NCBI GenBank assembly: GCA_008330645.1 | Contig: VLTN01000086.1 | Coordinates: 33,568-97,567, forward strand | Direction of reading: 5' to 3' | Length of the DNA: 64,000 bases | Source of the DNA: Cafeteria roenbergensis | Taxonomy: Eukaryota; Sar; Bigyra; Bicosoecida; Cafeteriaceae | In this document: piece after piece, positions 1 to 59,684 of the stretch | Numbering within the stretch: the stretch's first letter is position 1 | Layout: every line of letters begins with the position of its first letter | Translations under genes and position numbers: made by a program | The notes under the pieces: generated by a model | Told to the model about the DNA's origin: nothing | Database searches by the model: none | The model's input: only the letters and a program-made list of their open reading frames with translations

Positions 1-63
1 CTCCGCACGCACTGGCTCGCAGCCAGGCGAATCTTGAGCCGGGTCAGCTGGGCCCACGATGGG

Positions 64-3000: not shown

Positions 3001-6000
3001 GGAAAGCTTGTCCGGGGTCCTCGGACCGGCTTTCGGAAGGACTACGCGAGCATTCGCGACACGATGCGTGCGCGGCGCAGGAGCCCGTCTCTCACTGAGG
3101 GAAAGTTGCTCGGAATCGATGCCGACAAGCAGCTGGCACTCTCTGCTGCAGAGCCGGAGATGGGCAGAGCTGCGAAGGAAGGGGCAGAGCGAGAGCGAGC
3201 GGTTGCAGCAGCGATGGGCGAGCCAACATCGTCGGCGATGCTGACGGGGCCTCGGGTCAGGGCCCCCTCCGTCGCCATCGTGAAGGTGGACCTGTCAGAC
3301 ACGCTGCTGGGCGACTCCGCTCTTGGGCTCATCGCAGGCGCTTGCCCTCAGTTGACCGCTCTGACGCTGCGTCGCTGCCGCCGCATCGGCGCATCAGGGC
3401 TCGGCTCAATCTTCCGCCGCTGCCACCGGTTGACGTCGCTGGATGTGACAGACTCCCAGCAGCTGAACGACGCCGCCATATCGGCTCTCGTGGCAGCCTG
3501 CACTCCAACGGATCTTCGGCAGGGCAGAGCCACGTTCCTCGCGGCGGCTGCCAGCCTTCGGTCAACCTCCGAGGTTGACTGGATGCAGAGCCAGGGGTTC
3601 GCCTGCCCGCTGTCCGCGCTGACGCTCACCGGCTGCCACCGCATCACCGACGACGGCGTCGCCGCGCTGGCCAGGCGATTCGGAGCGTCGCTCCAAGCGC
3701 TGCATCTCTCAGGGTGCAGGGCGGTCGGAGACGCGTCGCTCAGTGCGCTAGCAGAGCACTGTTTCGGCCTCCAGGAGCTCTCCCTGGCCGGAAGACTCAA
3801 CGTGCAGCTGCCTGCCGTGAAACCGCCGGGCAACGCCGTCGCCGGCACAGACGCCACCAGCCACGCAATGCTGATCCGCCGCACGGTGGACGACGATGGC
3901 AACGACATCGCGTCAGACGACGACGGCGACCAAGGTGACCTTGCCGGTGGCGACGACGCCGAAGCGTGGTCGTCCGGAGACGAAGCCACACAGCGAGCTC
4001 TGGCGGCGCTGGACGACGGGGACGACGTGGTGGCTGCCGCCGCTGCCGCCACCGCGGGCGGCGCCGACCGCCGCCGGCTGGCCCGGCTCCGGGGGGGTCC
4101 CAAGCAGCACCACAAGACGATGTTTGGCCGCCCCAGGGTCACCGGGGCGGGGCTGCGACGCCTCTTCGAGTCGGTCGCGCTGCGGGCGTCGCTCCAACGG
4201 CTGGACCTGCGTGGTCTGGTGCAGCTCAAGGACGCTGACGTGGCGCTGATGTTCCCTCTGGAAGCGGAGCGAGAGCGGGAGCGACGCTTGGACCGAGCCA
4301 AGCGGCGCAGACGCCGGCGGCGGAAGCAAAAGCGCCGAATGCGCTGGCTCCAGCAGCACAGCCGCGAGCACCAGCCTCAGCAGCAAGAGCCAGGCACAGG
4401 CGACAGCTTCGACACCGATCGGAGTGGCGACGAAGCGGACGGGGACGGCAAGCGCGACGGCGCGCGGAGGCAGCGGCAGGGGGCGTTGCCGGGCCGTCGC
4501 GGGACCAGCAAGGCGCTATCACGTCGCACAGGCGCCCAGGCGCGACACCGCGCGTCGGCCAGAGCCACATCGAAGGGACTCGGGGTCAGCTCAGCAGGCG
4601 ACGCAGCGGGATCTGCCCCAGCAGCCGTCGCAGCCGCCGGTGCGGCGTCGGCGTGGCCAGGCGCGGACGCGGCCAGAGGCCCGGGCGACGGCAGCAGCGG
4701 CTCCGACGGCTCGGGGGACAGCGACTCCTCGAGCGGTGTGTCGGACAACACCCTCCAGGAGCGCCCCGACCGCGTGGCCCCCGGCTACTTCGACAACCCC
4801 TCCGACCGGCGCATCCTTCGCGGGGGCGGCGGCGGCCTCGACGGCATCAGCACCGACATCTTCGGCAGAGCCACTTCCGACTTTGTCGTCGGAGACGCCG
4901 ACGGAACGATCGACGGCGCTGGCACGTACGGGGGCATCGACGCCGAGGTGGCCAGTCTGGCAGGATCGAGCGACGCGGAGCGCCGCCGGGAGGAAGAGCT
5001 GAACATCGCCTACGCGTCGCCCGCAGGTCTGCAGTCTCTCAACCTGCGCGGCACCCGAGTCGGCAGAGCCGCGGTGCAGCGGCTCACCTCGTGGCTGGTA
5101 GAGCAGCGGCAGCTCACACGGCGGGCGGCTGCGAGCGCTGGGTTGCTGCCCGACGGCCTGGCTGCGGACGGCGGGCCAGACAGCGGCTGGGAGGGCTGGG
5201 GCGACCAGGCCCACACCCTCGCGCCGGCAGGGCCGCTCTCTTCAGCGTTCGGCGACGGGGACGCCTCGGGCGAGCCAGCCCTGCCGGCAGCTGCTGCGGT
5301 GGCCGGGGCTCTGCCGACCAGCTCTGCCTTGGCGAATCCACGCACCGGCTTGCCGCGCGACGGCCCCACCGCGGGCGTTCGAGGCGCTGCGCCGCGGCTG
5401 CGCATCGGCCGCCGACGCACTGCCGTCGCGGCCGTGGAGGTGCCCCCGTTCACGCCTGCGCTGCGCCGGCTCCTCCTCAGCAACTGCGCCGACCTTGACG
5501 ACGCGGCACTGGCGGAGTTCGGCAGGGCGGCCCCGTACCTGGAGTCGCTGACGATCGACGGCAGCGTGCTTGTGACCACGGCGGGCGTCGCTGCTGTTGC
5601 CGCCGTGTGCCCCAACCTGCGCTTGCTGAGCCTGTGCCGGGTCAGCCTGGTGACGGACGACGCCGTGGCTGCGCTCGCGCGCGACTGCCCGCTGATGGAG
5701 CGGCTTCGGGTGAAGGACTGCCCGGACATCACTCAGGGCGGCTTGCTGCGGGCGGCCCGGCTGCTGCCGCGGGTGTGGCTCGGCCTCGAGTCGTCGCTCC
5801 AGCTCGGGCAGTCGCACGTCGCCCAAGTGTCGGTCGCCGACCAGTCAGAGGGCCAAGAGGCCTCCGGGACCGCCCAACTGGCCATTCCAGCCCCGGCCTC
5901 CGGGAATCGGCGCAGTGACCACCTTGCGGCGGTCAAGAGTGGCAGGTCCGTTGCGCCGGAGCAGTCGCTGCTGGCCGTCACGGCGTCCATCGAGCCGTCC

Positions 6001-9000
6001 GTCGCGACGGGGCGGTCGGCCGGAGACGCTGCCGATGCGACGGGGGGACGGCGGGCGGTTGCCGTCAAGGCATTTCCGGGACACTTCCCGGAGTACCCGC
6101 GGGACACGGCGACGCCATCGGTGCTGTGGTCGGCGCGCACGGCCGGAGCCAAGGGCGGGCTGTCGTCCCGAAGCTCCGGGGCCGGCCGAGACACGTCTCG
6201 CAGCTTCGCCACCCCACCGACCTTGGCTGCGCAGCGTGGCGCCGACGGCGAGGGCCGGTCCGGGGCGGTGGATGCGGTTCTGGCTCTGCCACGGGCTTGG
6301 GACGAGCCAGGCAGCGGTCGATCGGACGCCGAGGTGGGCGACGTCGGCACCTTGGGACGGCTGAAGCGCGGCGCGCTGTCGCCTCTTGCTCACGGCGCGA
6401 CAGTTGGTGGCCGGGGCAGGTCGCTGCATCGCGAGGACGGGGCCCCCGCGGAGCCAATGCAGCGCGGAGGAAGTGCCCCGGCTCTGCCTCGCGTCTCTCA
6501 CCGCGGGACCGGCGCAGCCGAGTCACACCGCCATCGCAAGCGTGTCAAGGACACATCAGGCACGGCGCAGCTTCGCAAGGCCAGCACGTTGCTGGCGGCG
6601 GCGCTGGGCAAGCTGGCAGGGTTCGTGGAGCAGCGGGAGGCGGCGAAGGGCTCCGCGGCAGCAGCTGCCGTCGCAAACGCCGTGGCCGACAGCGAGCTGG
6701 CGCGGAGCCGCAGGGCGCAGTCCCGGCCGGGGGCCTCAGCCCCTGGGTCGGCGATGGTGGCGTCTCCGCTGAAGCAGAGCCACTGGCCCGCGCCCGACGC
6801 CCAACGAGCTGCTTCCGGCAGAGCCACCACACCGCAGCCACGCTCCACGGTGCGTGCGGAGCCGCCAGAGACGTCAGAGGCAGCGGCGACTGCCGCAGCT
6901 GGGTTTGTGGCTGGGACGGAGTCGGGGCGCACCGGGCGCGAAACCGCCGGAAGTGGCCAGCATGCGCAGCAGGGGGCACTGCCAGTGCTGCCCATGCCCC
7001 AGGCTCAGCCTCGCACTGCCCCGTCCGGCCGATCATCCGGACGTCCCGGGCGGGTCAGGTCCCAGTCAGCGGGGCCGGTGCGTCGCTCCCTCTCGCCGGC
7101 CCCGGCGGAGGCGGGGTCTGCCGCAGGCAAGGACGGCTCTGCCGATGCGGAGGACAGCGGCCCCGCAGACGCGTCGCGCGGCGCAGGCGATCTGGGCCCA
7201 GCCGCCGAGGCCGGCAGCTCTGCCAAGCAGTGGCTGGTCGGGGAGTCTGCGGACGGGGACGGCCCCGGTGGGGCCGGCTCTGCCCGGGGCGTGTCCGCGG
7301 CTGCGGGCGGGGCGGCCCTGGATGCTTGGGACGACTCTGAGACCGGCCGATTGCTGCGCCGCTCAGCCGCCTCTGCCATCGTCGCCGCGTCAATGCTGCC
7401 CTCGGCGGAGGGCCTTGGGCCGTCCGCGCTTGCTGCGGTGTCGTGCGAGGTGGGTCTGACCCCCGCTCTGCCGCTGGTGCTTCGCACGGTTTCGCGTCGC
7501 GCGGAGGAGATGCGCGCGGCTGCGGTGCTGCAGCACAACCTCCGCCAGTACAGGCGGCGCTGCATGGTGCTGCGGGCGCAGCGGGCGGTGACCACCGCCG
7601 TCGCCGAGCGGCTCCGGGCGGGGGCCGTCGCGATGCAGCGGCTCTGGCGGCAGTACTCGGCGCGCCTGCAAGTGCGCCGCCTGCTTGCAGAGCGGGTCAC
7701 GACCCTGTCACGGCACCGCATGGCGTCGTGGAAGCTGATCCAGCGCTGGTGGCGCGGCTGCGTGGGGCGGGAGGAGGCGAGGCGGCACCGCTTGGCGCGG
7801 CTGCTGAGGCGCTTCCACGCCTGGAGGCGGCTCGTGCGCGCCTTCAACGTGGCGGCGGCCGAGAGGCCGGCTGACTGCGCCGTCACGATCCAATCGGCCT
7901 GGCGCATGCACGTCGCCAAGACGTCCGCCGCCGTCCGCCGCCGAGCCGCGACGTCCATCGGCAGAGCTTCATGCAGAGCCGTGTTCCGGCGGCGACTGGT
8001 CGCGGCTCTGCCGGCCGTCCGCCGCGTGGCGCTGGCGCGGCTGGCCGTCGCCCGCTTCGGCCAGTGCCGTTGGCGCGGGTTCGCCTACGGCCGTCGCGTG
8101 GCGGCGGAGCTCCGAGAGCGCCGTCGCGCTGGCGCAGCTGCTCTGCAGACGTGCTTCCGCGGCTTCGCCAGCCGGAGGAACGCAAGAGCGATGCGCCGAC
8201 GGACGCTGCTCGGAGCAACGCTGCTCGGCGCCGCCGCCCGGGGCCTGTTGGTTCGCGCTCGGCTCTGCCGGCACTTCGTAGCCACTCGGTTTATCGAGAC
8301 GCCGCCGATCATGACCAGCCTGGGGCCCCCCGACAGCGAGGCAGCGGGCCCTCCGCCAGCCGACCACGGCGCCGCCCGAGACCGGGAGCGACCAGCGGCA
8401 TCGCCGCCCGCTGGCGCACGCTCTGGCGAGCATGCGAACGCGAGTGCGGATGCGGATGCGGATGCGGATGCGGATGCGGAAGCTGCTGGTGGCGACGCCG
8501 CAGGGGCGGCCGTGGCAGCGGTGGCGCCAGTGTGGCCCTTCCCAGCGCGCGCGCGGTGCGTGTGGCAGCGCCGGCTGGCGGAGCGTGTGCTGGAGAGGCG
8601 CAGGGTGGCGGCCGCAGCGACCCGGCGCATCTTGCGTCAGTGGCGCGTGTTCCGGTTCCGGCGGCTGCTCTGGCACCGTCACTTTGGCCGTCTGGTGGAG
8701 CGCAAGCGGGTGAACGACGCGGCGTCTCTCATCCAGCGTCAGTGGAAGACCCACGTGGGCAGAGCCATCGTCCGCGAGGGACGCCGACGCGCTCGCCTGG
8801 CGCGGCTGGTCGCAGCGCATGCGCGTGGCTTCATGACCCGGCGGCGCCTGCGGCGTGAGCGGCAGGAAGCACTGCAGGCTGAGGCGGCTGAGCGGGCGGC
8901 GGCGAAGCACCCGTGGCTGCGGGGCTGGGTGCGGAACGTCGAGTGCGGAGCCGCCGTCAAGATCCGCCGGTGGTGGCGAGCCATCATCGGGCCGCACCTG

Positions 9001-11379
9001 GCGCTGCGGCGGTGGCGGGTGAAGCGCGACGCGGCGGCCAGAGTGCTGCAGCGAGCGTTCCAGGCGTTCTCCTGGCGGAGAATGTTCCGCTCCGCAGCGA
9101 CCCGTCGGGCCGATGCGGTTTCGCGGCTCTGCCGGTGGTGGCGGAACAACCGCACGATGCGCCTGTGGCGCGCGCTGTTCCGGAACAAGGCGGCTCTCAA
9201 GGCCCTGGCGCGGCGGCGCGAGCGCTCGGCGCACCGGGTGACGGAGCGCCTCGAGACGCGCTGGGCGCTCGACCTGAAGCGCCAGCACGAGGTGGCCAGG
9301 ATCATGCAGCGGCTCTACCGGGCCCGCTCCTCGGAGCGCAACTCGCCCACGTGGCAGGCGCGGCGGCGGCTCTTCGAGGAGCTGCAGTACGCTCCGCGGC
9401 AGCGGCGGGTGTTCCTGGCGGCGGCCGAGTCCCAGGAGCTGGTGCCGTTCAAGTCCGCGCGCGCCTATCTCCCGGCCGTGCGGGGCGACCTGGTCGACAG
9501 GGCCCGCCGGCGGCTGCGCGTGGACGTGCGCGTGCTCGCTCGGCGGATCGTGGAGGGCACCCGGGCGGAGGCGGAGGAGGCTTCGAGCGAGACGGCGCTG
9601 GCCATCAGCGGCGGCGGCGGGGCAGTCGAGCGACTCCGCGCCGCTCTGGCGGGGGCCCGATCGGGCGGCGGCGGCGAGCACATGGCGTCCCTGATGCGGG
9701 TCAGCGAGGAGGAGCGTCGCCTGATGGAGGTCGTTCGGGCGGCCGGCCAGGGGGGCTGGGGCCTGGGGCCGTTCGCGGGCATGAAGGCCTTTGGAGGCGC
9801 CGTTCTGGCCGTCACCGGCGGCCTCGGAACCAGGCGGCGAAAGCAGCGGGCCGCGGCGAGGCCGCCGCTCCAGCCGCCCTCGTCGTCCGCGCGCTCCGGC
9901 AGAGCCGCTGTCCGGACGGTGGCCAGGCCCTGGTCGACGCAGGCAGCGGCGGGGCTGACCTCCAGGGCGGAGCACCACCACCGGCAGCACCCCGACCAGG
10001 ACGCCGACGTCCTCGACGAGGCAGAGGAGGAGGAGGAGGAGGACGGGGACGACGACGCCGATGACGACGCGGATGACGACGAGCTGCGGCTCGACGACGA
10101 GGGACCGGCAGAGCCGCGAAACCGCGGCGCGGCCTGGGGACGGCGGCGGCGTCGTGGCCTGGGCGAACCCGAGAGGCTCGGCGGCGGGATCGAGGGGGCC
10201 CTGGTGGGGCCCCGCATGCCCCAGCAGGGGGACCTGCCCAAGGACAGCCTGCCGCTCGCAGGCCCCGGAGATGCGCGGCGGCCGGACACACGGGCCGACG
10301 CGGAGGCCTCGGTGCAGGAGGCGGCGGCGCGAAACCGCGCCCAGGCGGCGGTGAAGCGCCGGGCCAGGGCGCGGCTGCGAGCGCGGCTGGTGGGGCTCAG
10401 CGTCGGCGCCGAGGCGAACGCTCTGGCGGTGCGCCTCCTCAACGCGTACGAGCTGGGCAGGGCGGAGATGGTGCTGCGCCGGCGGGCGCTGGCGCTGGGG
10501 TGGCGCACCCCCGCGATGCGGAAGCGAGACAAGGCCACCTCCAAGGCGGCCCGCAGACAGGGTCCAGCCGGGTCAGGCGCGGAGGCCGGAGCGGACGCGC
10601 TGGCGGCCGCGTCACTCGCGGCGGGCAGCGCCGTGCCGGCCGGCGGGTCGGCCTCGTCGTCGTCGTCGGCGACGTCGTCCGTGGCGGCGTCGGCCGCGTC
10701 GGCGCTCCGGGCTGCCTCCAAAGCGGGGTACGTCGAGTCGCGCCGGGACAGCAAGGCGGCTGACTGGGAGGCAGACGCCCTCACGCGCGTGTGGATGGGG
10801 GGCAAGCGACCCGGGGGCCTGTTCCCGGCGCTGGAGGCGGAGGCGCGGCTGGTGCAGGCGAGCCTGGGGCTGGCCAACGCGAAGAACATCCGCGGGGCCC
10901 CGGGCCCGTTCGGGGTGGAGGGCTGGCACTTTGCACGCGCCGTCAGCGTCCGGCCCGACGAGGCAGAGTTGACCGTCGCGGACATTCGCACGCGCAAGCG
11001 CATTCGCGACCTGGACTGGGAACGCGCGGCGGGGTACCACTACGCCGCCATGGCGAGGGAGGAGCTGGCCAAGACGCGCCGCGAGGAGGCCAACTTGAAG
11101 CGGGACATCGACGCCATGCAGCGGCGGTCGGCGGACATGGAAGACGCTCTCTCGCGCTTTCGCGCAGTCACGGACGAGCTGGCGGCGGACGTCACGGAGC
11201 ACGAGGCGCAGGCGCGGAGGAACGAGGAGGCGCAAGAGCGCGTGCTCAGGGAGGTGGAGGCCGTGCGGGCGGAGGCGTGGGCGGCGCGCGAGGAGGGAGG
11301 AGGGGTCATCGGCGCGGACGAGCTGCTCGCGCTGATGCGCAGGCTGACGGCCGCCGCAGGCATGGAGGAGGGGATCTGA
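64..11379 (+). CDS. Giant leucine-rich-repeat and IQ-motif protein with C-terminal coiled coil
   Basis: About 3771 residues. The frame is open to the left edge; an earlier in-frame TTG at 34 is not a credible eukaryotic start, so I use the first ATG (64), but an upstream exon is possible. Cysteine-type (AMN1/FBXL-like) LRRs lie in blocks near residues 513-559, 701-812, 1070-1243 and 1799-1909, with motifs such as LTSLDVSGC and LQELNLAGC. Residues about 2480-3090 carry a series of basic IQ-like helices (AVTIQSAWRMHVAK, ASLIQRQWKTHVGRA, AALQTCFRGFASRR), expected to bind calmodulin or EF-hand light chains. An Asp/Glu tract follows (about 3314-3349), then a coiled coil (about 3658-3746). Long Ser/Gly/Ala-rich linkers separate the blocks. 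LRR plus IQ suggests a scaffold, perhaps ciliary or centrosomal; that role is inferred. No F-box is visible. It converges on the TPR gene downstream. Confidence 0.85.
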   Translation: MALPEEGSALPTLGERFPLGGDGDDDHVEDEDAIGRVTRFRGAGETKSGRAGSKWTSTGVGPVGRSRGFAAVKGRAGAGTSAAASRGQGGLPLTGRSDGSASLGDPRSDRAGSSTGRASSRGSGRVSSRSKTSDLASRSSRQSVRLADDVPQMDAGRPFSYDWSQLAVVGPQPWALELARLRADAAQRAKWGRPAERYRVWPEPGHRGATARAGKILAVARRGDVGTSRWMAGAASLESLVLAAGTRLDGAEAASEWRARLAAAEAAADASGGRGPSTSAARSAAGRAQWGSSSAWAAGGSMWDVARGDGASAAGGVTQALRRAAGAGGAPALVGLPLSLQSAQSAAELDALRSGFASLRRRRAAEAAAAAAAAAAAAGRGGAGTSAGQPAEDDELATTFRRDRNPMAPWAVEQPSGGPEQTAHAAADPSASGVGADLRPALPAHGRDIGLRGPMHQDMLSLDFGHRRPLPVVDFRGFGASLTDPLLRSLMRMGSGVSAGPSRAPSLMTSPSVKALRSLSVRGCRSLTSESLLPLVLASPSLTSLDVSGCLGLGATFFRGLMADWFFETRRDALHHALGQIRAGKAQQAALRGEITTALQDVDSSAIDEELLLAEDQGLLGDAGETAGGGVGGSGRDARSSTAAGRRSGAAQSGRATGRATSKSSSGLGLGAPSPAGERRSRLELFGTAGSALPANARPTRLRHVLRRLDVSRCPGVTRAVVRSWPSRLLSLEWLCLRGAGEGGGSDAVRDAALDQIASRPGGFARLTSLDIGNCSAVSDEGVVGLLSATAGALQELNLAGCRQLTALALTGLPAGQREGSGEAAPSAGRSTGAGGVQGGEGSRPGEQGSAGDGVGASVKSRSSVRQPASARPSGGSHGGEAQGSKTASDKLRGSASRGSLKGRRGASSSLASTAASTDSLDMMATRMTSASDGPAAEDPAPMSDAESEGGGPRSAAGGVTGPHAAEVDDDPTDTTEAGGKLVRGPRTGFRKDYASIRDTMRARRRSPSLTEGKLLGIDADKQLALSAAEPEMGRAAKEGAERERAVAAAMGEPTSSAMLTGPRVRAPSVAIVKVDLSDTLLGDSALGLIAGACPQLTALTLRRCRRIGASGLGSIFRRCHRLTSLDVTDSQQLNDAAISALVAACTPTDLRQGRATFLAAAASLRSTSEVDWMQSQGFACPLSALTLTGCHRITDDGVAALARRFGASLQALHLSGCRAVGDASLSALAEHCFGLQELSLAGRLNVQLPAVKPPGNAVAGTDATSHAMLIRRTVDDDGNDIASDDDGDQGDLAGGDDAEAWSSGDEATQRALAALDDGDDVVAAAAAATAGGADRRRLARLRGGPKQHHKTMFGRPRVTGAGLRRLFESVALRASLQRLDLRGLVQLKDADVALMFPLEAERERERRLDRAKRRRRRRRKQKRRMRWLQQHSREHQPQQQEPGTGDSFDTDRSGDEADGDGKRDGARRQRQGALPGRRGTSKALSRRTGAQARHRASARATSKGLGVSSAGDAAGSAPAAVAAAGAASAWPGADAARGPGDGSSGSDGSGDSDSSSGVSDNTLQERPDRVAPGYFDNPSDRRILRGGGGGLDGISTDIFGRATSDFVVGDADGTIDGAGTYGGIDAEVASLAGSSDAERRREEELNIAYASPAGLQSLNLRGTRVGRAAVQRLTSWLVEQRQLTRRAAASAGLLPDGLAADGGPDSGWEGWGDQAHTLAPAGPLSSAFGDGDASGEPALPAAAAVAGALPTSSALANPRTGLPRDGPTAGVRGAAPRLRIGRRRTAVAAVEVPPFTPALRRLLLSNCADLDDAALAEFGRAAPYLESLTIDGSVLVTTAGVAAVAAVCPNLRLLSLCRVSLVTDDAVAALARDCPLMERLRVKDCPDITQGGLLRAARLLPRVWLGLESSLQLGQSHVAQVSVADQSEGQEASGTAQLAIPAPASGNRRSDHLAAVKSGRSVAPEQSLLAVTASIEPSVATGRSAGDAADATGGRRAVAVKAFPGHFPEYPRDTATPSVLWSARTAGAKGGLSSRSSGAGRDTSRSFATPPTLAAQRGADGEGRSGAVDAVLALPRAWDEPGSGRSDAEVGDVGTLGRLKRGALSPLAHGATVGGRGRSLHREDGAPAEPMQRGGSAPALPRVSHRGTGAAESHRHRKRVKDTSGTAQLRKASTLLAAALGKLAGFVEQREAAKGSAAAAAVANAVADSELARSRRAQSRPGASAPGSAMVASPLKQSHWPAPDAQRAASGRATTPQPRSTVRAEPPETSEAAATAAAGFVAGTESGRTGRETAGSGQHAQQGALPVLPMPQAQPRTAPSGRSSGRPGRVRSQSAGPVRRSLSPAPAEAGSAAGKDGSADAEDSGPADASRGAGDLGPAAEAGSSAKQWLVGESADGDGPGGAGSARGVSAAAGGAALDAWDDSETGRLLRRSAASAIVAASMLPSAEGLGPSALAAVSCEVGLTPALPLVLRTVSRRAEEMRAAAVLQHNLRQYRRRCMVLRAQRAVTTAVAERLRAGAVAMQRLWRQYSARLQVRRLLAERVTTLSRHRMASWKLIQRWWRGCVGREEARRHRLARLLRRFHAWRRLVRAFNVAAAERPADCAVTIQSAWRMHVAKTSAAVRRRAATSIGRASCRAVFRRRLVAALPAVRRVALARLAVARFGQCRWRGFAYGRRVAAELRERRRAGAAALQTCFRGFASRRNARAMRRRTLLGATLLGAAARGLLVRARLCRHFVATRFIETPPIMTSLGPPDSEAAGPPPADHGAARDRERPAASPPAGARSGEHANASADADADADADAEAAGGDAAGAAVAAVAPVWPFPARARCVWQRRLAERVLERRRVAAAATRRILRQWRVFRFRRLLWHRHFGRLVERKRVNDAASLIQRQWKTHVGRAIVREGRRRARLARLVAAHARGFMTRRRLRRERQEALQAEAAERAAAKHPWLRGWVRNVECGAAVKIRRWWRAIIGPHLALRRWRVKRDAAARVLQRAFQAFSWRRMFRSAATRRADAVSRLCRWWRNNRTMRLWRALFRNKAALKALARRRERSAHRVTERLETRWALDLKRQHEVARIMQRLYRARSSERNSPTWQARRRLFEELQYAPRQRRVFLAAAESQELVPFKSARAYLPAVRGDLVDRARRRLRVDVRVLARRIVEGTRAEAEEASSETALAISGGGGAVERLRAALAGARSGGGGEHMASLMRVSEEERRLMEVVRAAGQGGWGLGPFAGMKAFGGAVLAVTGGLGTRRRKQRAAARPPLQPPSSSARSGRAAVRTVARPWSTQAAAGLTSRAEHHHRQHPDQDADVLDEAEEEEEEDGDDDADDDADDDELRLDDEGPAEPRNRGAAWGRRRRRGLGEPERLGGGIEGALVGPRMPQQGDLPKDSLPLAGPGDARRPDTRADAEASVQEAAARNRAQAAVKRRARARLRARLVGLSVGAEANALAVRLLNAYELGRAEMVLRRRALALGWRTPAMRKRDKATSKAARRQGPAGSGAEAGADALAAASLAAGSAVPAGGSASSSSSATSSVAASAASALRAASKAGYVESRRDSKAADWEADALTRVWMGGKRPGGLFPALEAEARLVQASLGLANAKNIRGAPGPFGVEGWHFARAVSVRPDEAELTVADIRTRKRIRDLDWERAAGYHYAAMAREELAKTRREEANLKRDIDAMQRRSADMEDALSRFRAVTDELAADVTEHEAQARRNEEAQERVLREVEAVRAEAWAAREEGGGVIGADELLALMRRLTAAAGMEEGI
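8446..8480 (+). repeat. Hexanucleotide (GCGGAT)n microsatellite in CDS
   Basis: About six copies of GCGGAT, codon-aligned, encode an alternating Ala-Asp run between two IQ-like helices of the LRR/IQ protein. It is length-unstable in principle but always in frame. Confidence 0.9.
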
Positions 11380-11936: not shown

Positions 11937-14900
11937 CTACTGCAAGCAAGCCCCAATCAGTCGGCGCACTTGCGCGAAGTGGGGGTGATGTTCGCCCAAG
12001 GACCTCGCAAAGATGCCAGAACACCTGGTGAGCAGTTCCAGGGCGACCTCATTCTCGCCCTTGAGCAGCCGACACTGCGCCATCGTGTACACCGTGTTCG
12101 CGAAGCTCGGGTGCTCCTCGCCAAGCGAGGAGGCTTGGATGGCCCCGCACCGCTCCAGCAGATCCAGTGCCGCGTCGTACTCACTCATTTGCAGCCGACA
12201 TTGCGCCATCGCGTACAGCGTGCCTGCAAAGTCTGGGTGATCCTCGCCCACCGACGAGGCCTGGATGGCCCTGCAGCTCTCCAGCAGAGTCAGCGCTGCG
12301 TTGTACTCCCCCTTGGCACGCCGACACTGCGCCATTGTGGACACCGCGCCCGCGAAGTCTGGGTGCTCCTCGCCCACCGACAAGGCGTAGATGTCCCGGC
12401 AGCGCTTCAGCAGCTCAAGTGCCGCGTCATACTCGCCCTTGTGCTGCCTACATTGTGCCATTGTGAACAGCGTGCGGGCAAAGTCTGGGTGCTTCTTGCC
12501 CACCAACAAAGTGCTGGCTTCCGCGCACCTCTCCAGCAGATCCAGCGCCGCATCGTACTCGCCAATCTGAAGCCGACACTGCGCCATCGTGTACAGCGTG
12601 CTCACGAAACTAGGGTGATCCTCGCCAAGCGACGAGGCTTGGATGGCCCCGCACCGCTCCAGAAGCTCCTGTGCTGCGTCGCACTCGCCCATTTGCAGCC
12701 GACATTGCGCCATTGCGTACAGCGTACCTGCGAAGCTCGGGTGCTCCTCGCCCAGCGACAAGGACTGACAGTCCCTGCAGTGTTCCAGCAGATCCAGCGC
12801 CACATTGTACTCGCCCAAAGCACGCCGGCACTGCGCCATCGTGTACAGCGTGCCGCCGAGGTTCGGGTGCTCCTCGCCCACCGAGGAGGTGTAGATGTCT
12901 CTGCACCGCTCCAGCAGATCCAGTGCTGCGTCGTACTCGCCCTTCTGCTCACGACACTGCGCCATCGTGTACAGCGTACTTGCAAAGTTTGGGTGCACCT
13001 TGCCAACCGACGAGGCGTAGATGTCCCTGCACCGCTCCAGCAGCTCAAGCGCCGCGTCGTACTCGCCCCTGTGCTGCCAGCACTGCGCCATCGTGAACAC
13101 CGCGCTTGCAAACCTCGGGTGATCCTCGCCAACTGACGACGCGTACATGTCCCTGCAGCGCTCCAGGACCTCCAGCGCCGCATCACACTCGCCTCGATGC
13201 AAAAGCCGAACCCCGCATGCGTGCAGCCTCAGACCAAAAGCGTGGCTCGCGTCAGCATCCTCACGACAGCTTGCTGCCACCAACAAGCACAACACCTCCA
13301 GCGCCCCGAACGAAGACGCCCGCGCGCAAGTCTCCGACAGCGAGTGCACTGCGCCGCCTCGACGGTGCCGCCACGCCTCGCTGCACAGCCGCTCGCCCAG
13401 CCTCAAGCCGCGCAGCTGTGACGCGATCATGCGCTCCGCCAGTCCCGCTGAGTCGCCCCCGAACGACAGCGCAGCGCCTCGCCGCTCGCTCTGCGCGCCG
13501 GACCCAGACACCTTCACGCGCCGCCCACACCCCCGCTGCATGGCCGCCCACGCCTGCGCGACGGTACTCCCAGCTGCGGCTGCTTCCTGGCCTACCAGTA
13601 CCGCCGTCACCAGCGGCACGCCGCGCCCCCTGGCCGCCACACCACGAGCCACGCAGCACGCCAGCAGCCAGTCCGCATCCGCATCGGCGCCCCCGGCAGC
13701 TCCCTCTGACACCAGACACTCCAGCGCCGCTGCACCGCTCGACCCGGGACTCGGCAGGCTGCCGCACGCCGCAGCGGCGCGAAGCACCGGTCGAGGAAGC
13801 CCCATACCGCCGGGCTCCCCTGCTCGGTCCAGCATCGCGCCCAGCACCCGCCACGCGTGCCGCAGCCCCAGCCCGCGGGTATGAAGGCCGGCTTTGACCG
13901 CTCGCCGCACCCACGCCACGTCGTCGCCCTGCCCCGCTCGCCAGCACTCGATCAGACGCTCCTGCACCGCATCCGCCGCCCGGGCCACGTTGTCGGCGCC
14001 CAGCAACACGCCGCCCGCCGCCACAAGTCTGCCCTTCGCAAGGCCCGCGGCATCCCCGCCACTGGCCATCACGGCGTCCGGTGACACCGGCTCCGCCCCT
14101 GCCTCCCGCAGCACGGCTGCCGCCTCGGGTCGGAACAGCGCCGTCAAGTGCTGTGCCCGCCAGTACTGCCTGGGCCGCGGCAGGAGCACTCGGATCGCCC
14201 CGTCGCTCGACTGCATCACCGCCACCCCGCAGCACGACGCCAGCGGGCCCAGCTCAACCGCGCTCCACACCGGAGCCGTGGCGCCAGTCAGGAGCCCAGC
14301 CTCCCGAGCGGCCAGTGTGGCCAAGGCAGCGTCAGTCGAGCCGCCCTCCGGCAGCCCCACCACTCGCAGCACTGGTGAGGACGAGGACGAGGTCCAGCCA
14401 TCCAAAGCTGCCCTGCCACCTTCACCATCAGCGCCAGACGGGGCCCTCAGAGCAGCGGCCCACACGACCGCAACCTGGCCACCCGCCGCCGCACCGCCGC
14501 CCGTCACGTCGGGGATGCACAGCCGGTGCGTGTCCAGCAGCACCACCTCGCCCCACGGCAGCGCGTGCAGCTCCACGTCGAACGGCAGACGACTCGGCAC
14601 CCCACCGGCATCTCTGGCCACAGTGGCGCTGTGCTCCGCGTGCACCGGCCGCAGCGGGTCCAGCACCACGCCGTGCTCCGCCTCCACCTGCGCGCACACC
14701 CCTGAGCTCTCGGCCGCATGCCGGCCCGCCCCCACGCTCTCCAGCAGCGCGTCCGTGGCCGGGCCCAGCCGCGGGAAGCCGTCCGGGTCCCTGTCGCCCC
14801 GCACCCTCCGGTACTCGTGCCGGGTGAACAAACCTGAGATGGGAGCCTTCAGACTCGGGGCCAGGTGCAGCCCCGCCGCCAGCTCCTCCGCCACGCCGTC

Positions 14901-15695
14901 CAGCTCCGCGCACACGTGTGCCGTCCTCCCGCCGTCACCCGATCCCACCCGCAGCGTGTCGCCGCCGACCGCGTGCCGCGAGAAGCCCTGCACGCGGTAC
15001 ACCCGCTCCGGCCGACCAGCCGCGTCGCGCACCGTCACGTCCACGCACGACGCCAGCGGTACCGTCAGCAGCCGCGCCGCGTCCGCCTCGTGGAGGTGCG
15101 TGAGCATGGCCAGCTCGTGCTTGGCCGCCTTGTCCGCCATCACAGAGGAGCCCTTGTAGATGCCCACCGTGTCCTCGGCGATCTTGAAGAAGGCCCCCCT
15201 GCTGGGGTCGGCCACCTTGACGCCCCCCGCGAAGCCTACGTCCACCACTCGGAGACTCTCGCCACCCCGCAAGCGGCCCACGCACTCCTGCGTGATGACC
15301 TGAAGCGGCCTGTCGTCGCCGCTGCGCCTGCGCTGCTTGGCGTCGTGGAAGGCCCGGGCGATGGCGTCGGCGGCGCCCTCGGTGATGCGCTGGAAGGCCT
15401 GCCTCACACCCGCCAGCTCCTCCAGGCGCTCCAGGTGGTCGTGGGCGGTGAGCGTGGGCTTGTTGCGGAGGCGCGCGGCCTTGTCGCCCACGGTCTCGGG
15501 GCGAGCTGCGCCGGCTGCGGCCGGATGTTCAGCTCGGTGCGGCATGCCCGCTCCGCGAGGCGCAGCGCCAGGGGCTGTGCTGGCTTGCGCGGCATGGCCA
15601 GGGGCGAGGACAGTTTGCTGAAGCACAGCTGCATATTGGCCCGCTCCCGCAGCGCCGGCTTCCGGGGCCGTGAACGCCCCTGCCGCAGGGAACAT
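11937..15695 (-). CDS. CLU-like domain plus kinesin-light-chain-type TPR protein, paralogue A
   Basis: About 1252 residues from the ATG at 15695; the frame extends upstream to a GTG, but paralogue comparison shows that part is untranslated leader. The N-terminal half resembles the CLU (clustered mitochondria) domain: FFKIAEDTVGIYKGSS, a TLRVGSGDGGRT stretch, VVLLDTHRLCIPDV (compare the family's D-F-A-R-x-F-P-P-E), a later LFRPEAA...PVSPDA stretch and LHTRGLGLRHAWRVLG. Residues about 835-1251 are ten 42-residue TPRs of KLC type (core GEYDAALDLLERCRDIYASS). CLU proteins also end in KLC-type TPRs, which supports the assignment. Known CLU proteins affect mitochondrial distribution and bind mRNA for nuclear-encoded mitochondrial proteins; a shared role here is inference. 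The CLU match is divergent and by eye only. Confidence 0.75.
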   Translation of the reverse strand: MFPAAGAFTAPEAGAAGAGQYAAVLQQTVLAPGHAAQASTAPGAAPRGAGMPHRAEHPAAAGAARPETVGDKAARLRNKPTLTAHDHLERLEELAGVRQAFQRITEGAADAIARAFHDAKQRRRSGDDRPLQVITQECVGRLRGGESLRVVDVGFAGGVKVADPSRGAFFKIAEDTVGIYKGSSVMADKAAKHELAMLTHLHEADAARLLTVPLASCVDVTVRDAAGRPERVYRVQGFSRHAVGGDTLRVGSGDGGRTAHVCAELDGVAEELAAGLHLAPSLKAPISGLFTRHEYRRVRGDRDPDGFPRLGPATDALLESVGAGRHAAESSGVCAQVEAEHGVVLDPLRPVHAEHSATVARDAGGVPSRLPFDVELHALPWGEVVLLDTHRLCIPDVTGGGAAAGGQVAVVWAAALRAPSGADGEGGRAALDGWTSSSSSPVLRVVGLPEGGSTDAALATLAAREAGLLTGATAPVWSAVELGPLASCCGVAVMQSSDGAIRVLLPRPRQYWRAQHLTALFRPEAAAVLREAGAEPVSPDAVMASGGDAAGLAKGRLVAAGGVLLGADNVARAADAVQERLIECWRAGQGDDVAWVRRAVKAGLHTRGLGLRHAWRVLGAMLDRAGEPGGMGLPRPVLRAAAACGSLPSPGSSGAAALECLVSEGAAGGADADADWLLACCVARGVAARGRGVPLVTAVLVGQEAAAAGSTVAQAWAAMQRGCGRRVKVSGSGAQSERRGAALSFGGDSAGLAERMIASQLRGLRLGERLCSEAWRHRRGGAVHSLSETCARASSFGALEVLCLLVAASCREDADASHAFGLRLHACGVRLLHRGECDAALEVLERCRDMYASSVGEDHPRFASAVFTMAQCWQHRGEYDAALELLERCRDIYASSVGKVHPNFASTLYTMAQCREQKGEYDAALDLLERCRDIYTSSVGEEHPNLGGTLYTMAQCRRALGEYNVALDLLEHCRDCQSLSLGEEHPSFAGTLYAMAQCRLQMGECDAAQELLERCGAIQASSLGEDHPSFVSTLYTMAQCRLQIGEYDAALDLLERCAEASTLLVGKKHPDFARTLFTMAQCRQHKGEYDAALELLKRCRDIYALSVGEEHPDFAGAVSTMAQCRRAKGEYNAALTLLESCRAIQASSVGEDHPDFAGTLYAMAQCRLQMSEYDAALDLLERCGAIQASSLGEEHPSFANTVYTMAQCRLLKGENEVALELLTRCSGIFARSLGEHHPHFAQVRRLIGACLQ
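11940..13199 (-). repeat. Ten tandem 126-bp TPR-encoding units (paralogue A)
   Basis: Each unit encodes 42 residues with the pattern GEY-DAAL-LLERC-...-GEEHP-F--TLYTMAQCR. Copies vary more than in paralogue B: units with C or N for Y, and a lone AEAST segment in unit 6. The last unit is capped by RLIGACLQ before the stop. Confidence 0.9.
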
Positions 15696-16780
15696 GCCGC
15701 TTTCAGTCAAAGCGGTTCTGCACTCTTCATCTGTGCTGCGGTGGGCCACTGCGAGGGAGCGGGCGGGCGGCCAAAGCGAGCGGGCGCAAACAAACTGAGC
15801 TTGGCAGCCAGCACGCGCCCCGCTGACATCCTGTTCTCCAGTCACAACGCGCGCCCCCAAAGCTGCACGAACGGCTCGCAACACCTGGCGCCTCCCTCAC
15901 TTGGACCTCAGGTGCGGGTCGGCCCGGCGAAAGTGTGAGTGTTGTTTTCCGGGCAGGTGGGTAAGCTTGTTGTTGGGCTTGACTGTGGCGTGAACTCACG
16001 AGCTGTGTCTCGCTGTCTTGAGTTGACTCTGCCGGGCCCCGAAGCCGCCGAAGTGCTCGCCCGCCGCTAGACTGGTGGAGGGCAGCGCTCTTCAGTCGCC
16101 CTCCCCTGGCTCCGCCGCCCTGAGCTGCCTGCCGCGTCCCTGTCCTGCTCCAAAGCGCCCAACGAATTGGCCGCAGAGCTCGTAGATGTGTTCGGCGCCA
16201 GCAGATGCGCCCCTTGCCCACCTTCAGGCCGTGATGCTTCCGCGGACCCAGCCCTGCCGCCGTGCGAGTAGGCAGGAGGATATCATTGCTGCCTGACGAG
16301 AAGCGCGGGGGCAAGGGGGCCGGTCCACCACCGCTCCGACGCTCGCACCAGAACCCCAACAGGGCACACACAAGACAACATGAGCTCCATTGTGCCCTTC
16401 CTCGTCACGACCACGGGACGCAGGGGACCGGCAGCGGAAGTGGAGCGTTTGCGGTGAGCAGGGACGGCTGAGTGGCAACTCGTGGCAGCGTGATGGGTGT
16501 GATCTGGGATTGGGCTTGGGATTGCGGGTTTCGCGCGGTTTGTGATTCATCGGTGATGGATTTTGCTGGATTGGGTTTTGATGAGTCTGCGAATCGAGTG
16601 TCCGGCCCAAACTGTGGTTAACGTCAACAAATGTGCGGGCAAGACTCTCCATCGGGTGGCACAGAAACGAAGACCACGGACCCCATATGCCGCACCGATT
16701 CAAAGTATTGAGCAACCTCGTACCGCCGCCCGCACGCGATTCCCCAACGTCCCGGCAGGGTCGACACGGGCGAAATCCAG
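15696..16780. other. Intergenic region between the tandem CLU/TPR paralogues
   Basis: Holds the leader and promoter of paralogue A and the 3' UTR of paralogue B. About 325 bases upstream of the A start are recognisably homologous to the same part of B, so the duplicated unit included its promoter. The stretch 16495-16610 is conspicuously T/G-rich for this window, with repeated GGGATTG/GGGCTTG words. No convincing gene was found. Confidence 0.6.
15749..15900 (-). other. Putative 5'-leader intron of paralogue A
   Basis: On the minus strand, CCAA|GTGAGG at 15900 and a pyrimidine-rich CTCCCTCGCAG ending at 15749 could bound a 152-base intron upstream of the start. The same donor and acceptor positions are kept in paralogue B (151 bases), while the sequence between has frame-breaking indels. 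No transcript evidence is available. Confidence 0.35.
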
Positions 16781-19700
16781 CTACTGCAAGCAAGCTTCAA
16801 TCTCTTGACGTGCAGCCAGGAAGTGTGGGTGCCGTTCACCCAATGACCTCGCAAAGATCACAGAGCACCGAGTTAGCAGACCCAGCGCCGCATCGTTCTC
16901 CCCCTTGTCACGCCGACACTGCGCCATCGTGTACAGCGTGCTCGCGAAGCTCGGGTGCTCCTCGCCCACCGACGAGGCTTGGATGTCCCTGCACCGCTCC
17001 AGCATATCCAGCGCCGTATCAATCTCCCCCTTTTCCTGCCAGCACAGCGCCATCGTGTACAGCGTGCTCGCGAAGCTCGGGTGCTCCTCGCCCAGCGACA
17101 AGGCGAAGATGTCCCTGCACCGCTCCAGCAGACCCAGCGCCGCATCGTACTCCCCCTTGTTGCGCCGACACTGCGCCATCGTGTACAGCGTGTTCGCGAA
17201 GTGCAGGTGCTCCTCGCCCACCGACGAGGCCTGGATGTCCCTGCACCGCTCCAGCAAACCCAGCGCCGCATCGTACTCCCCCTTGAGCATCCGGCACTGC
17301 GCCATAGTGTACAGCGTGCTCGCGAAGCTCGGGTGCTCCTCGCCCACCGACGAGGCTTGGATGTCCCTGCACCGCTCCAGCAGATCCAGCGCCGCGTCGT
17401 ACTTCCCTGTGGCCTGCCGACACTGCGCCATCGTGTACAGCGTGTTCGCGAAGTGCAGGTGCTCCTCGCCCACCGACGAGGCGAAGGTGTCCCTGCACCG
17501 CTCCAGCAAACCCAGCGCCGCATCGTACTCCCCCTTGTCCTGTCGACACTGCGCCATTGTGTTCAGGGTGCCCGCGAAGCTCGGGTGCTCCTCGCCCACC
17601 GACGAGGCGTAGATGTCCCTGCACCGCTCCAGCAGACCCAGCGCCGCATCGTACTCCCCCTTGTCCTGTCGACACTGCGCCATCGTGTACAGCGTGTTCG
17701 CGAAGTGCAGGTGCTCCTCGCCCACCGACGAGGCGTAGATGTCCCTGCACCGCTCCAGCAGACCCAGCGCCGCATCGTACTCCCCCTTGAGCATCTGGCA
17801 CTGCGCCATTGTGTTCAGGGTGCCCGCGAAGCTCGGGTGCTCCTCGCCCAGCGACGAGGCCTGGATGTCCCTGCACCGCTCCAGCAGACCCAGCGCCGCA
17901 TCGTACTCCCCCTTGTTACGCTGACACTGCGCCATCGTGGATAGCGTACTCGCGAAGCTCGGGTGCCCCTCGCCCACCGACGAGGCCTGGACGTCCCTGC
18001 ACCGCTCCAGCAGACCCAGCGCCGCATCGTACTCGCCCTTGTCGAGCCGACACTGTGCCATCGTGTACAGCGTGCCCGCGTAGCTCGGGTGCTCCTCGCC
18101 CAGCGACGAGGCGAAGATGTCCCTGCACCGCTCCAGCAGACCCAGCGCCGCATCGTACTCCCCCTTGAGCATCCGGCACTGCGCCATTGTGTTCAGGGTG
18201 CCTGCGAAGCTCGGGTGCTCCTCGCCCAGCGACGAGGCGTAGATGTCCCTGCACCGCTCCAGCAGATCCAGCGCCGCATCATACTGCCCCTTGTGCACCT
18301 GACACTGCGCCATCGTGTACAGCGTGTGAGCGAAGCTCGGGTGCTCCTCGCCCACCGACGAGTCGAAGATGTCCCTGCACCGCTCCAGCAGACCCAGCGC
18401 CGCATCGTACTCCCCCTTGTCACGCCGACACTGCGCCATCGTGAACAGCGTGTTCGCGAAGCTCGGGTGCTCCTCGCCCACCGACGAGGCGAAAATGCCC
18501 CTGCACCGTTCCAGCAGATCCAGCGCCGCGTCGTACTCGCCTCGACCCAGCAGGCGGAATGCACACGCCTGAAGCCTCGTCCCCAGAGCTTTGTTATCAC
18601 CAGCGTCCGCGCACCAGCCCGCGGCCACCAGCAAGCACAACACCTCCAGTGCCCCGAACGAAGACGCCCGCGCGCAAGTCTCCGACAGCGAGTGCACTGC
18701 GCCGTCTCGACGGTGCCGCCACCCCTCGCCGCACAGCCGCTCGCCCAGCCGCAAACCGCGCAGCTGCGACGCGATCATGATCTCTGCCAGTCCCGCTGAG
18801 TCGTCTCCGAACGACAGCGCAGCGCCTCGCCGCTCGCTCTGTGCGCCGGACCCAGACACCTTCACGCGCCGCCCACATCCCCGCTGCAGGGCTGCCCATG
18901 CCTGCGCGACGGCACTCCCAGCTGCGGCCGCTGCCTGGCCCACCAGCGCCGCCGTCGCCAGCGGCACGCCGCGCCGCCTGGCCGCAACACCACGAGCCAC
19001 GCAGCATGCCAGCAGCCAGTCCGCATCCGCAACGGAACAACCGGCAGCGCCCTCTGACGCCAGACACTCCAGCGCCGCTGCACCGCTCGACCCGGGGCTC
19101 GGCAGGCTGCCGCACGCCGCAGCGGCGCGCAGCACCGATGGACGGAGCCCCACACTACCAGGCTCCCCTGCTCGGTCCAGCATCGCGCCCAGCACCCGCC
19201 ACGCGTGCCGCAAACCCAGCCCGCGGGTATGAAGGCCGGCTTTGACCGCTCGCCGCACCCACGCCACGTCGTCGCCCTGCCCCGCTCGCCAGCACTCGAT
19301 CAGACGCTCCTGCACCGCATCCGCCGCCCGGCCCACGTTGTCGGCGCCCAGCAACACGCCGCTAGCCGCCACAAGCCGGCCCATCGCGCGACCCTCCTCA
19401 TCCGCACCACCTGCCATCACGGCGTCCGGTGACACCGGCTCCACCCCTGCCTCCCGCAGCACGGCCGCCGCCTCGGGTCGGAACAGCGCCGTCAGGCGCT
19501 CCGCGCGCCAGTACTGCTCGGGCCGCGGCAGGAGCACTCGGATCGCCCCGTCGCTCGACTGCAGCACCGCCACCCCGCAGCACGACGCCAGCGGGCCCAG
19601 CTCAACCGCGTTCCACACCGGAGCCGTGGCACCGGTCAGGAGCCCAGCCTCCCGAGCGGCCAGTGTGGCCAAGGTAGCGTCAGTCGAGCCGCCCTCCGGC

Positions 19701-21082: not shown

Positions 21083-21100
21083 CTGTGCAGCGGTTGGCCA

Positions 21101-21251
21101 CTGCGAGGCAGAGAGCGGGCGGCCAAGGCGAGCGGGCGCAAAAAAAACAGCTTGGCAGCCAGTACCCGCCCCGCCGAGAGCCTGTTCTCCAGTCACATCG
21201 CGCGCCCCCAAGGCTGCACAAACGGCTCGCAACACCTGGTGCCCCCCTCAC
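21101..21251 (-). other. Putative 5'-leader intron of paralogue B
   Basis: Minus-strand CCAA|GTGAGG at 21251 and CTCTCTGCCTCGCAG ending at 21101 bound 151 bases. The next exon would read TGGCCAACCGCTGCACAG and then the ATG. The equivalent sites are conserved in paralogue A. Confidence 0.35.
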
Positions 21252-21708
21252 TTGGTCTTCGGGCACGGGTCGGGACGGCGAGCGCGCGAGTGTTGTTTTC
21301 TGAGCCACGACAAAGATCGCATTTGGGCTTGACTATGTTTCGAACTCACCAGCTCCGATTCACAGTCTTGCACGGCCCCAGCACACGGAAGCATGCACAA
21401 AACGCCCAGCCTCTCCCCGCCCGCACCCCACTTGCCGCCGCCCCAACGGAGAGTCGGCATGTGTATTCCCTCTTCAACAAAACGGAACCAATGACTTCTT
21501 CAGCACGATGTCGACGGGGGCCTCCTCCGTTTTACAATTCGAAGCATGTTTGACCAGAAGCAAAGATCTTCTGGCTGCAACATGAGACCGGCGAGCTGAG
21601 ACGGCACACCCGCTTGTTGGACTCTGCGATTGCTGCGGAGCATCACGCGCACACAGAGGTGTCGCGAAAAGCTTGACCAGAGCTCACGGGCCGGTTGTTG
21701 GTTCTCGC
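21252..21708. promoter_or_regulatory. Divergent promoter region
   Basis: Separates CLU/TPR paralogue B (-) from the coiled-coil gene (+). It is noticeably AT-richer than coding sequence (for example 21300-21360 and 21480-21570). I see no recognisable TATA or initiator motif; the promoter role rests on position. Confidence 0.45.
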
Positions 21709-37024: not shown

Positions 37025-37055
<31 letters not shown>

Positions 37056-51200: not shown

Positions 51201-51357
51201 GCTTGGCTGAATCCCATGCATTCCCCTCGGCGGCCCCAGCAGCGTGTGGGTCTTCCCGCTCCCCGTCTGCCCGTAGGCTAGCACGGCGCTGTTCAGGCCG
51301 CGCCAGGCATCCCGTAGGCAGGGCACGCCCACGGCCGCGAACACGTCAGCCTGCGAC

Positions 51358-51397
<40 letters not shown>

Positions 51398-56589: not shown

Positions 56590-56612
56590 CCGGGCGGGGA
56601 GACGCTGCCAAC
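56590..56612 (-). other. Frame change 1 in the REJ gene
   Basis: The upstream frame ends sensibly at DVDIDVTGTVGSVSP. The sensible downstream frame is PRPAGGFGLRVAGG. One surplus base within CTCCCCGCCCGGCC on the coding strand explains the shift. The alternative reading after this point becomes Arg/His-rich nonsense. Confidence 0.75.
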
Positions 56613-59600: not shown

Positions 59601-59684
59601 CGGCGGGGCGAGCATCAGCTCGGCCACGGAGTCCTGGGCGGCGGTCATGGCCACGCCCACGCCGTTGGAGCCGGTGAACGCGCA

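What the first reader, a model, noticed from the sequence alone, without database searches (positions are those of the whole stretch)
9115..10125. The two words fuse into one 19-bp element present in both orientations in one gene
9115-9133 reads GCGGTTTCGCGGCTCTGCC, and 10107-10125 is its exact reverse complement, in a different reading frame (VSRLCR versus PAEPRNR). A one-mismatch copy lies near 30413. The single words often share a third flank: GGCAGAGCC followed by ACTTC at 2035 and 4864, and GAAGTGG preceding either word at about 34394 and 37384. This modular build suggests one longer ancestral or functional element with degenerate fragments, such as a tiny mobile repeat or a composite binding site.
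Basis: seen in the sequence. Interest (0 to 1): 0.82.

Follow-up and report, generated by a model that had tools for sequence, protein, structure and literature searches.

The report
Recurring DNA words hidden in genes
In this GC-rich eukaryote a few 9 to 14 letter DNA words recur hundreds to thousands of times and, where sampled, lie mostly inside long coding frames of some genes, in either orientation and any reading frame, where they go with unusual codon choice; the reported 19-letter element is two such words side by side and does not look like a mobile repeat.

Summary
The 19-mer and its reverse complement are where reported, but the composite is rare: 5 exact copies in 36.3 Mb. Its parts matter more. 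GGCAGAGCC (B) has 10,998 copies against 994 reversed controls; GCGGTTTCGC (C) 2,499 against 249. Both occur on both strands and in all frames and go with unusual codon choice: 148 B in word-rich ORFs against 9.8 after synonymous shuffling. Some ORFs carry them, others do not (window: 68 of 72 B in four ORFs, none in five others). One-mismatch forms are enriched mainly at the ends, two-mismatch forms not at all; one pair of diverged copies differs at words only by small changes. That argues against decayed mobile repeats. C and B prefer a 2-bp spacing (13 of 73 close pairs, 2.0 at other gaps); GAAGTGGCTCTGCC has 155 copies against 0. Best reading: intragenic, duon-like recognition sites read on double-stranded DNA. 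Factor, function and species are unknown; selection is not shown.

The parts
9115..9133 (+). 19-mer C+B composite (GCGGTTTC-GC-GGCTCTGCC), reads AVSRLCR in the long ORF
10107..10125 (-). second exact 19-mer, reverse orientation, reads PAEPRNR in the same ORF
30415..30433 (+). one-mismatch 19-mer copy in a different ORF
2035..2048 (+). A-B composite GGCAGAGCCACTTC (155 copies genome-wide, 0 reversed controls)
4864..4877 (+). A-B composite GGCAGAGCCACTTC
34395..34408 (-). A-B composite, in a stretch of a kinesin motor region not aligned to solved kinesins
37386..37401 (+). GAAGTG directly followed by word C
1..11379 (+). word-rich ORF (3792 aa, leucine-rich repeats); 19 B and 9 GCGGTTTC
26065..32502 (-). 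word-rich ORF (2145 aa, no Pfam family); 10 B and 6 GCGGTTTC (counted on the stop-to-stop frame)
32999..42622 (+). word-rich ORF, kinesin (3207 aa); 23 B and 10 GCGGTTTC (counted on the stop-to-stop frame)
45276..53486 (-). word-rich ORF, kinesin (2736 aa); 16 B and 10 GCGGTTTC (counted on the stop-to-stop frame)
21673..25590 (+). intermediate ORF; 3 B and 1 GCGGTTTC
11937..15884 (-). contrast ORF without words, TPR/nephrocystin-3-like
16781..21235 (-). contrast ORF without words, TPR/nephrocystin-3-like
53705..55156 (+). contrast ORF without words (483 aa, no Pfam family)
56013..59822 (-). contrast ORF without words, no Pfam family
60153..63386 (-). contrast ORF without words, REJ domain

Best explanation
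The 19-mer is two members of a genome-wide set of short DNA words lying next to each other in a preferred arrangement. The words are best read as recognition sites for sequence-specific factors that bind double-stranded DNA inside the coding regions of a subset of genes (duon-like sites). Shown, in the sampled sequence: rather sharp motifs (B is about YGGCAGAGCC/T, C about GCGGTTTCRC); both strands and all frames; concentration in some long ORFs; codon choice that goes with the word; B and C in the same ORFs; preferred C-N2-B and A-B arrangements genome-wide; differences by small changes at one compared locus. Inferred: that a protein reads them, that selection rather than a mutational drive keeps them, and that their role is to mark or regulate those gene bodies.
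For: Genome counts against the reversed pattern: B 10,998/994, C 2,499/249, GAAGTGGCTCTGCC (contains B) 155/0, GATCCTTCC 925/44, GCGTCGCTCA 1,294/281; the two strands are similar in each. Synonymous shuffles of 16 word-rich ORFs (86 kb): B 148 against 9.8 (largest of 100: 18), C 42 against 1.4, GATCCTTCC 14 against 0.46. With ORF class set by the other words, AGA encodes the Arg of Gly-Arg-Ala in 44 of 82 against 7 of 72, and TCT the Ser of Gly-Ser-Ala in 56 of 102 against 16 of 88. Split-half test on 43 ORFs: second-half density 1.88/kb (11 ORFs with first half at least 1/kb) against 0.26/kb (21 ORFs with first half 0), rho 0.55. B per kb: 1.72 in rich ORFs, 0.10 in poor ORFs, 0.15 in non-ORF DNA. 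Substitutions at core positions of B (4-8) total 84 against 92 expected and of C (5-8) 14 against 15; two-mismatch ratio 1.01 for both (sums mine). B and C densities correlate across 65 ORFs, rho 0.49.
Against: No binding, chromatin or expression data here. Regulatory sites are usually sought near promoters (general knowledge), whereas these are spread through ORFs (226 words in 13 ORFs; only 9 each in the first and last tenth) and scarce in non-ORF DNA. In the one pair of diverged copies, words are no more conserved than other 9-mers (26 of 31 shared in the well-aligned part; 86% of all 9-mers identical), so purifying selection is not shown. No common function of the rich ORFs was found. Word-poor ORFs also show a mild excess (B 13 against 4.9, C 3 against 0.5, TGACGTCA 5 against 1.2), so the split is not absolute. 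A mutational or repair bias like that proposed for HIP1 could give much of the same pattern.
Confidence: 0.5

Rival explanations
1. A non-selective molecular drive (biased repair, gene conversion or context mutation) creates and keeps the words, as proposed for HIP1 in cyanobacteria; they need no function.
For: Deviations from B and C are enriched mainly at end positions (B positions 1 and 9: 138 against 29, sums mine), as the HIP1 paper reports for HIP1. Words differ between two copies by small changes and are not more conserved than other 9-mers. Density rises with low complexity (rho 0.46) and Ala content (rho 0.61) over 43 ORFs.
Against: At least four distinct words are enriched (B, C, GATCCTTCC, GCGTCGCTCA), though the last is weaker and phase-biased, so one repair enzyme seems too little. 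Two window ORFs with similar low-complexity share (0.55 and 0.56) have 3.16 words per kb and none. Non-ORF DNA in loci with rich ORFs is not richer than elsewhere (8 words in 31.7 kb against 15 in 58.3 kb).
Confidence: 0.22
2. Self-recognition or recombination sites (Chi-like, uptake-sequence-like): the words direct pairing, repair or exchange to certain gene bodies.
For: Copy number and strand symmetry recall uptake sequences, and B and C vary together along contig C1 (rho 0.44 in 61 bins of 20 kb, from the places printed).
Against: Concentration in some ORFs and low density in non-ORF DNA are not expected of a general recombination signal; several words rather than one.
Confidence: 0.13
3. 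One reading: degenerate copies of a tiny mobile repeat, the 19-mer being closest to the ancestor.
For: Preferred C-N2-B and A-B arrangements; the same composite in both orientations; one-mismatch forms exceed expectation overall (B 249 against 140, C 52 against 22).
Against: That excess lies mainly at the end positions and vanishes at two mismatches (1.01); flanks of the two 19-mers unrelated; flanks of 187 B copies close to random beyond one base on each side; one compared pair of diverged copies shows no inserted word; the words are far commoner than the composite.
Confidence: 0.04
4. RNA- or protein-level signal: codon-pair preference, peptide motif or RNA hairpin.
For: Words lie in ORFs; both are small inverted repeats (CGGC-AGA-GCCG; GCG-GTTT-CGC); GCGGTTTC is sense-biased in rich ORFs (38 sense, 18 antisense); phase 0 is the commonest phase of B.
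Against: All six frame-orientation classes of both words occur in rich ORFs; B is 62 sense and 72 antisense there; of 64 possible loops in CGGCnnnGCCG only AGA/TCT stands out (59 each, next 18).
Confidence: 0.06

Closest known systems
Duons, exonic transcription-factor sites (PMC6790085, passages seen; it cites Stergachis et al. 2013, not read)
   Same: Short DNA-level sites inside exons, proposed to influence both regulation and codons; gene bodies bound as well as promoters
   Different: Here the evidence is sequence statistics alone; a few words dominate, at 2-3 per kb in the richest ORFs, with little in non-ORF DNA
HIP1 (GCGATCGC) of cyanobacteria (PMC4390886, passages seen)
   Same: Highly iterated short word; one-base deviations lie mainly at the first and last positions
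   Different: HIP1 is a perfect palindrome linked to DNA methyltransferases in bacteria; here several non-palindromic words in a eukaryote, concentrated in some ORFs
DNA uptake sequences (PMC1939737, abstract and outline seen)
   Same: Short words, over-represented genome-wide, also within genes (PMC2346458, search listing only)
   Different: Bacterial transformation signal; that abstract describes gradual over-representation by similarity, whereas here two-mismatch forms are at expectation (1.01)
Periodic An/Tn clusters of C. elegans (PMC7725773, search listing only)
   Same: A DNA-level signal that does not act through the protein (from the listing and recall)
   Different: Listed there as non-coding DNA with periodic A/T runs; here GC-rich words inside ORFs, no periodicity evident

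Membership tests
Duon (exonic factor-binding site) | Lies in protein-coding sequence | tested here: met
   71 of 72 B in the window lie in mechanical ORFs of at least 400 aa; no transcript data
Duon (exonic factor-binding site) | Goes with codon choice independent of peptide | tested here: met
   Synonymous shuffles and independent class test
Duon (exonic factor-binding site) | Bound by a factor in vivo | not testable with these tools
   No footprint or ChIP data
Duon (exonic factor-binding site) | Reduced substitution at synonymous sites | tested here: inconclusive
   One pair of diverged copies: 26 shared and 5 differing words in the aligned part, about the 9-mer background; synonymous sites not separated
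HIP1-type highly iterated palindrome | Perfect palindrome | tested here: not met
   B has an AGA/TCT centre and C a GTTT/AAAC centre (sequence itself)
HIP1-type highly iterated palindrome | Whole-genome over-representation | tested here: met
HIP1-type highly iterated palindrome | Associated DNA methyltransferase | not tested
   No methyltransferase search or methylation data
Small mobile repeat (MITE-like) | Copies share longer sequence or flanks | tested here: not met
   (see full report)
Small mobile repeat (MITE-like) | Presence or absence by insertion between copies of a locus | tested here: inconclusive
   None among 5 differing words in one diverged pair; a sixth lay where the copies do not align; a second pair could not be fetched
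Small mobile repeat (MITE-like) | Trail of degenerate copies | tested here: not met
   One-mismatch excess mainly at end positions, two-mismatch ratio 1.01
DNA uptake sequence | Natural transformation with biased uptake | not testable with these tools
   Eukaryote; no assay

The most novel reading that the evidence does not exclude
A gene-body identity code: a lexicon of at least four DNA words and their fixed combinations, written into coding exons of a class of genes at 2-3 words per kb in the richest, read on the double helix by dedicated factors to mark those genes (for transcriptional licensing or a gene-body chromatin state), while other genes in the same region stay unmarked.
Probability: 0.15. 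Interest if true: 0.88.

Novelty: new variant of a known kind. Interest (0 to 1): 0.62.

Why it matters
Whether DNA-level signals really shape codon choice in exons has been questioned for duons (a passage of PMC6790085 cites such a proposal). Here the effect in one genome is large (about 15-fold over synonymous expectation for B in word-rich ORFs), involves few well-defined words, and differs strongly between ORFs, so one binding assay could test it directly.

Tried and rejected
Hidden introns: four B copies (34400, 34415, 34655, 34667) fall in two stretches of the first kinesin motor that do not align to solved kinesins, but the stretches keep the frame in low-complexity protein (Gly/Ser/Ala runs), and ORFs of 6-11 kb stay open, so introns seemed unlikely; no transcript evidence.

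Generic hairpins: of the 64 loops in CGGCnnnGCCG only AGA/TCT stands out (59 each, next 18).

Codon bias or peptide repeats alone. GCGTCGCTCA-like words are phase-biased, so for them a peptide share is possible.

Housekeeping against other genes as the basis of the split: looked plausible, but word-poor ORFs also hold PP4R3, GH47 and DHHC domains, so dropped. Pfam was run on all 15 rich ORFs plus L032, 31 of 41 poor ORFs and 3 of 9 intermediate ORFs. Membrane segments and GC3 showed no correlation at P below 0.05.

Periodicity: none evident in pair distances up to 400 bp. Viral origin: 0 matches to GCGGTTTCRCGGCTCTGCC in viral contigs, where records of this genome may be left out. Literature: none of the four strings of B and C was found as a whole word in the library searched; the listings, judged by title and start of abstract, held nothing on such words in protists. 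The species is unknown; Diacronema lutheri (PMC8379373, passages) has GC 73.25%, near the window's, but an assembly of 43.5 Mb in 103 contigs, so it is not this one.

Limits of the counts: the ORF set is mechanical (65 stop-to-stop ORFs of at least 400 aa whose second codon position has the lowest GC), without annotation. Rich (at least 1.15 words/kb, 15) and poor (at most 0.6, 41) were defined by word density, so rich-poor contrasts are partly circular; two searches were made to avoid that. The 9 intermediate ORFs were left out of rich-poor contrasts. L025, L026 and L029 were chosen as word-dense and L027, L028 and L030 as sparse stretches of contig C1. L032, fetched because it holds word pairs, was added to the rich set. 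L001-L005 were not counted. The map used the 100 plus-strand B places printed and 45 of the C places printed, up to 1.22 Mb of C1.
Full report
What was claimed and whether it is there. All of this is in the sequence, except that the near copy is at 30415. Seven matches with up to 3 mismatches occur where shuffles give 0.15.

The parts matter more than the whole. The window is a 64-kb piece of contig C86 of a 36.3 Mb assembly in 167 contigs, with kinesin, TPR and REJ domains, hence taken as eukaryotic. The 19-mer has five exact copies in the genome and none of its reversed control. Its right half, GGCTCTGCC, is the reverse complement of GGCAGAGCC (B), with 10,998 copies against 994 reversed controls. 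Its left half, GCGGTTTCGC (C), has 2,499 against 249. Strands are nearly equal. After a filter against simple repeats, B and then C headed the lists of enriched 8- to 10-letter words in 314 kb of window plus 25 sampled loci.

They act at the level of DNA. In the window B occurs in all six classes of orientation and phase, exact C in five and GCGGTTTC in six; in rich ORFs both words occur in all six. Shuffling synonymous codons within each ORF, which keeps the protein and codon usage, gives 9.8 B in 86 kb of word-rich ORFs where 148 are seen (largest of 100 shuffles 18), and 1.4 C where 42 are seen; in 126 kb of poor ORFs the figures are 4.9 and 13 for B, 0.5 and 3 for C, a mild excess. When ORFs are classed by the other words only, Arg in Gly-Arg-Ala is AGA in 44 of 82 cases in word-bearing ORFs but in 7 of 72 in the rest; Ser in Gly-Ser-Ala is TCT in 56 of 102 against 16 of 88.

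They belong to some genes. In the window 68 of 72 B lie in four ORFs, 3 in an intermediate ORF, 1 in 6.8 kb outside ORFs and none in 17.4 kb of five other ORFs. Over 65 ORFs counts are strongly overdispersed (chi-square 283, 64 df). In a split-half test on 43 ORFs the second half has 1.88 words per kb if the first half has at least 1 per kb (11 ORFs) and 0.26 if the first half has none (21 ORFs). B and C go together (rho 0.49 over 65 ORFs; rho 0.44 in 20-kb bins of contig C1). Words are spread along 13 rich ORFs except for fewer in the first and last tenths (9 and 9 of 226). No functional theme was seen: rich ORFs include kinesin, myosin, XRN, SHQ1 and RabGAP domains; poor ones include TPR, REJ, polycystin, PP4R3, GH47 and DHHC domains (10 of 41 poor ORFs were not scanned). 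Density rises with Ala content and low complexity, and four B copies of the first kinesin lie in stretches not aligned to solved kinesins, so weak protein constraint explains part of the pattern; but the codon test at identical tripeptides shows it does not explain all.

They are fairly sharp motifs. B is preceded (C 115, T 32 of 187) and followed (G 101, A 50 of 187) by preferred bases; beyond that flanks are close to random. Against synonymous shuffles, one-mismatch forms of B total 249 against 140 and of C 52 against 22, but the excess is mainly at the ends: B positions 1 and 9 give 138 against 29, positions 2-3 27 against 18, positions 4-8 84 against 92; C positions 1, 9 and 10 give 31 against 4, positions 2-4 7 against 3, positions 5-8 14 against 15. 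Two-mismatch forms are at 1.01 of expectation for both (sums by position are mine). A decaying repeat should leave more near copies.

The composites. GCGGTTTC followed by reverse-complement B within 0-30 bp occurs 73 times (reversed control 1), 13 of them at gap 2, the spacing of the 19-mer, against 2.0 on average at the other gaps; the opposite orientation gives 60 pairs (control 3) with a weaker maximum of 7 at gap 6. So the modular build is real but concerns a small share of copies. Other words behave similarly: GATCCTTCC (925 against 44 in the genome; 14 against 0.46 in rich and 3 against 0.54 in poor ORFs), and, more weakly, GCGTCGCTCA (1,294 against 281). TGACGTCA, which resembles a CRE/bZIP site (recalled), is enriched in rich ORFs (11 against 1.2) but also in poor ones (5 against 1.2).

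Not a mobile element, as far as tested. A search of the genome with 3.4 kb around the two 19-mers gave 45 matches: the window itself, one 170-bp stretch elsewhere in the query, and short matches mostly at an acidic tract just before the second 19-mer; one of these (C70, 76% identical) runs on across the second 19-mer, but C70 holds no exact 19-mer. Nothing matched around the first. Two diverged copies of one locus (C139 and C51; 91 substitutions and 45 gap columns in 6,174 well-aligned columns) share 26 words there and differ at five; each difference is one or two substitutions or a 1-bp length change, none an inserted word. A sixth differing word lies where the copies do not align and was dropped. 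It is not known whether these are alleles or paralogs, and some length differences could be assembly errors. A second pair could not be fetched.

Mechanism. The evidence fits recognition sites read on double-stranded DNA inside gene bodies. That a protein reads them is inferred. Selection is not shown: in the one pair compared, words are about as conserved as other 9-mers (84% against 86%). A HIP1-like drive is the main rival. Among known kinds the nearest is the duon, an exonic factor-binding site.

Verdict. The reported 19-mer is real, but its interest is as a pointer to a genome-wide set of intragenic DNA words that differ strongly between genes.

Noticed in passing
51831-51917 (-): ARAGORN calls a tRNA-Gly(GCC) inside the kinesin ORF on the same strand; perhaps spurious in GC-rich coding DNA.
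   Followed up: no
11937-21235: Two neighbouring TPR/nephrocystin-3-like ORFs; the window shares repeats with L018, which holds a similar ORF. None of the three carries B or GCGGTTTC.
   Followed up: partly
about 34217-34441 and 34628-34811; about 50708-51203 and 50306-50429: Both kinesin motor regions hold long stretches, partly low-complexity, that phmmer leaves unaligned to solved kinesins.
   Followed up: partly
10015-10083: Acidic (GAC/GAG) tract with dozens of similar stretches across the genome.
   Followed up: no
L031, L032; contigs C139, C152 and C51: C139 resembles part of C51 and C152 may too (same composite), perhaps alternative haplotypes; the L031 copy of the 6.5-kb ORF is not open throughout.
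   Followed up: partly
G000 C62:73597 and C62:81129: The same 42-bp C-to-B stretch occurs twice 7.5 kb apart, suggesting a local duplication.
   Followed up: no
contig C1, about 360-600 kb and 840-1040 kb: Long stretches with few copies of either word alternate with richer stretches, by the places printed.
   Followed up: partly
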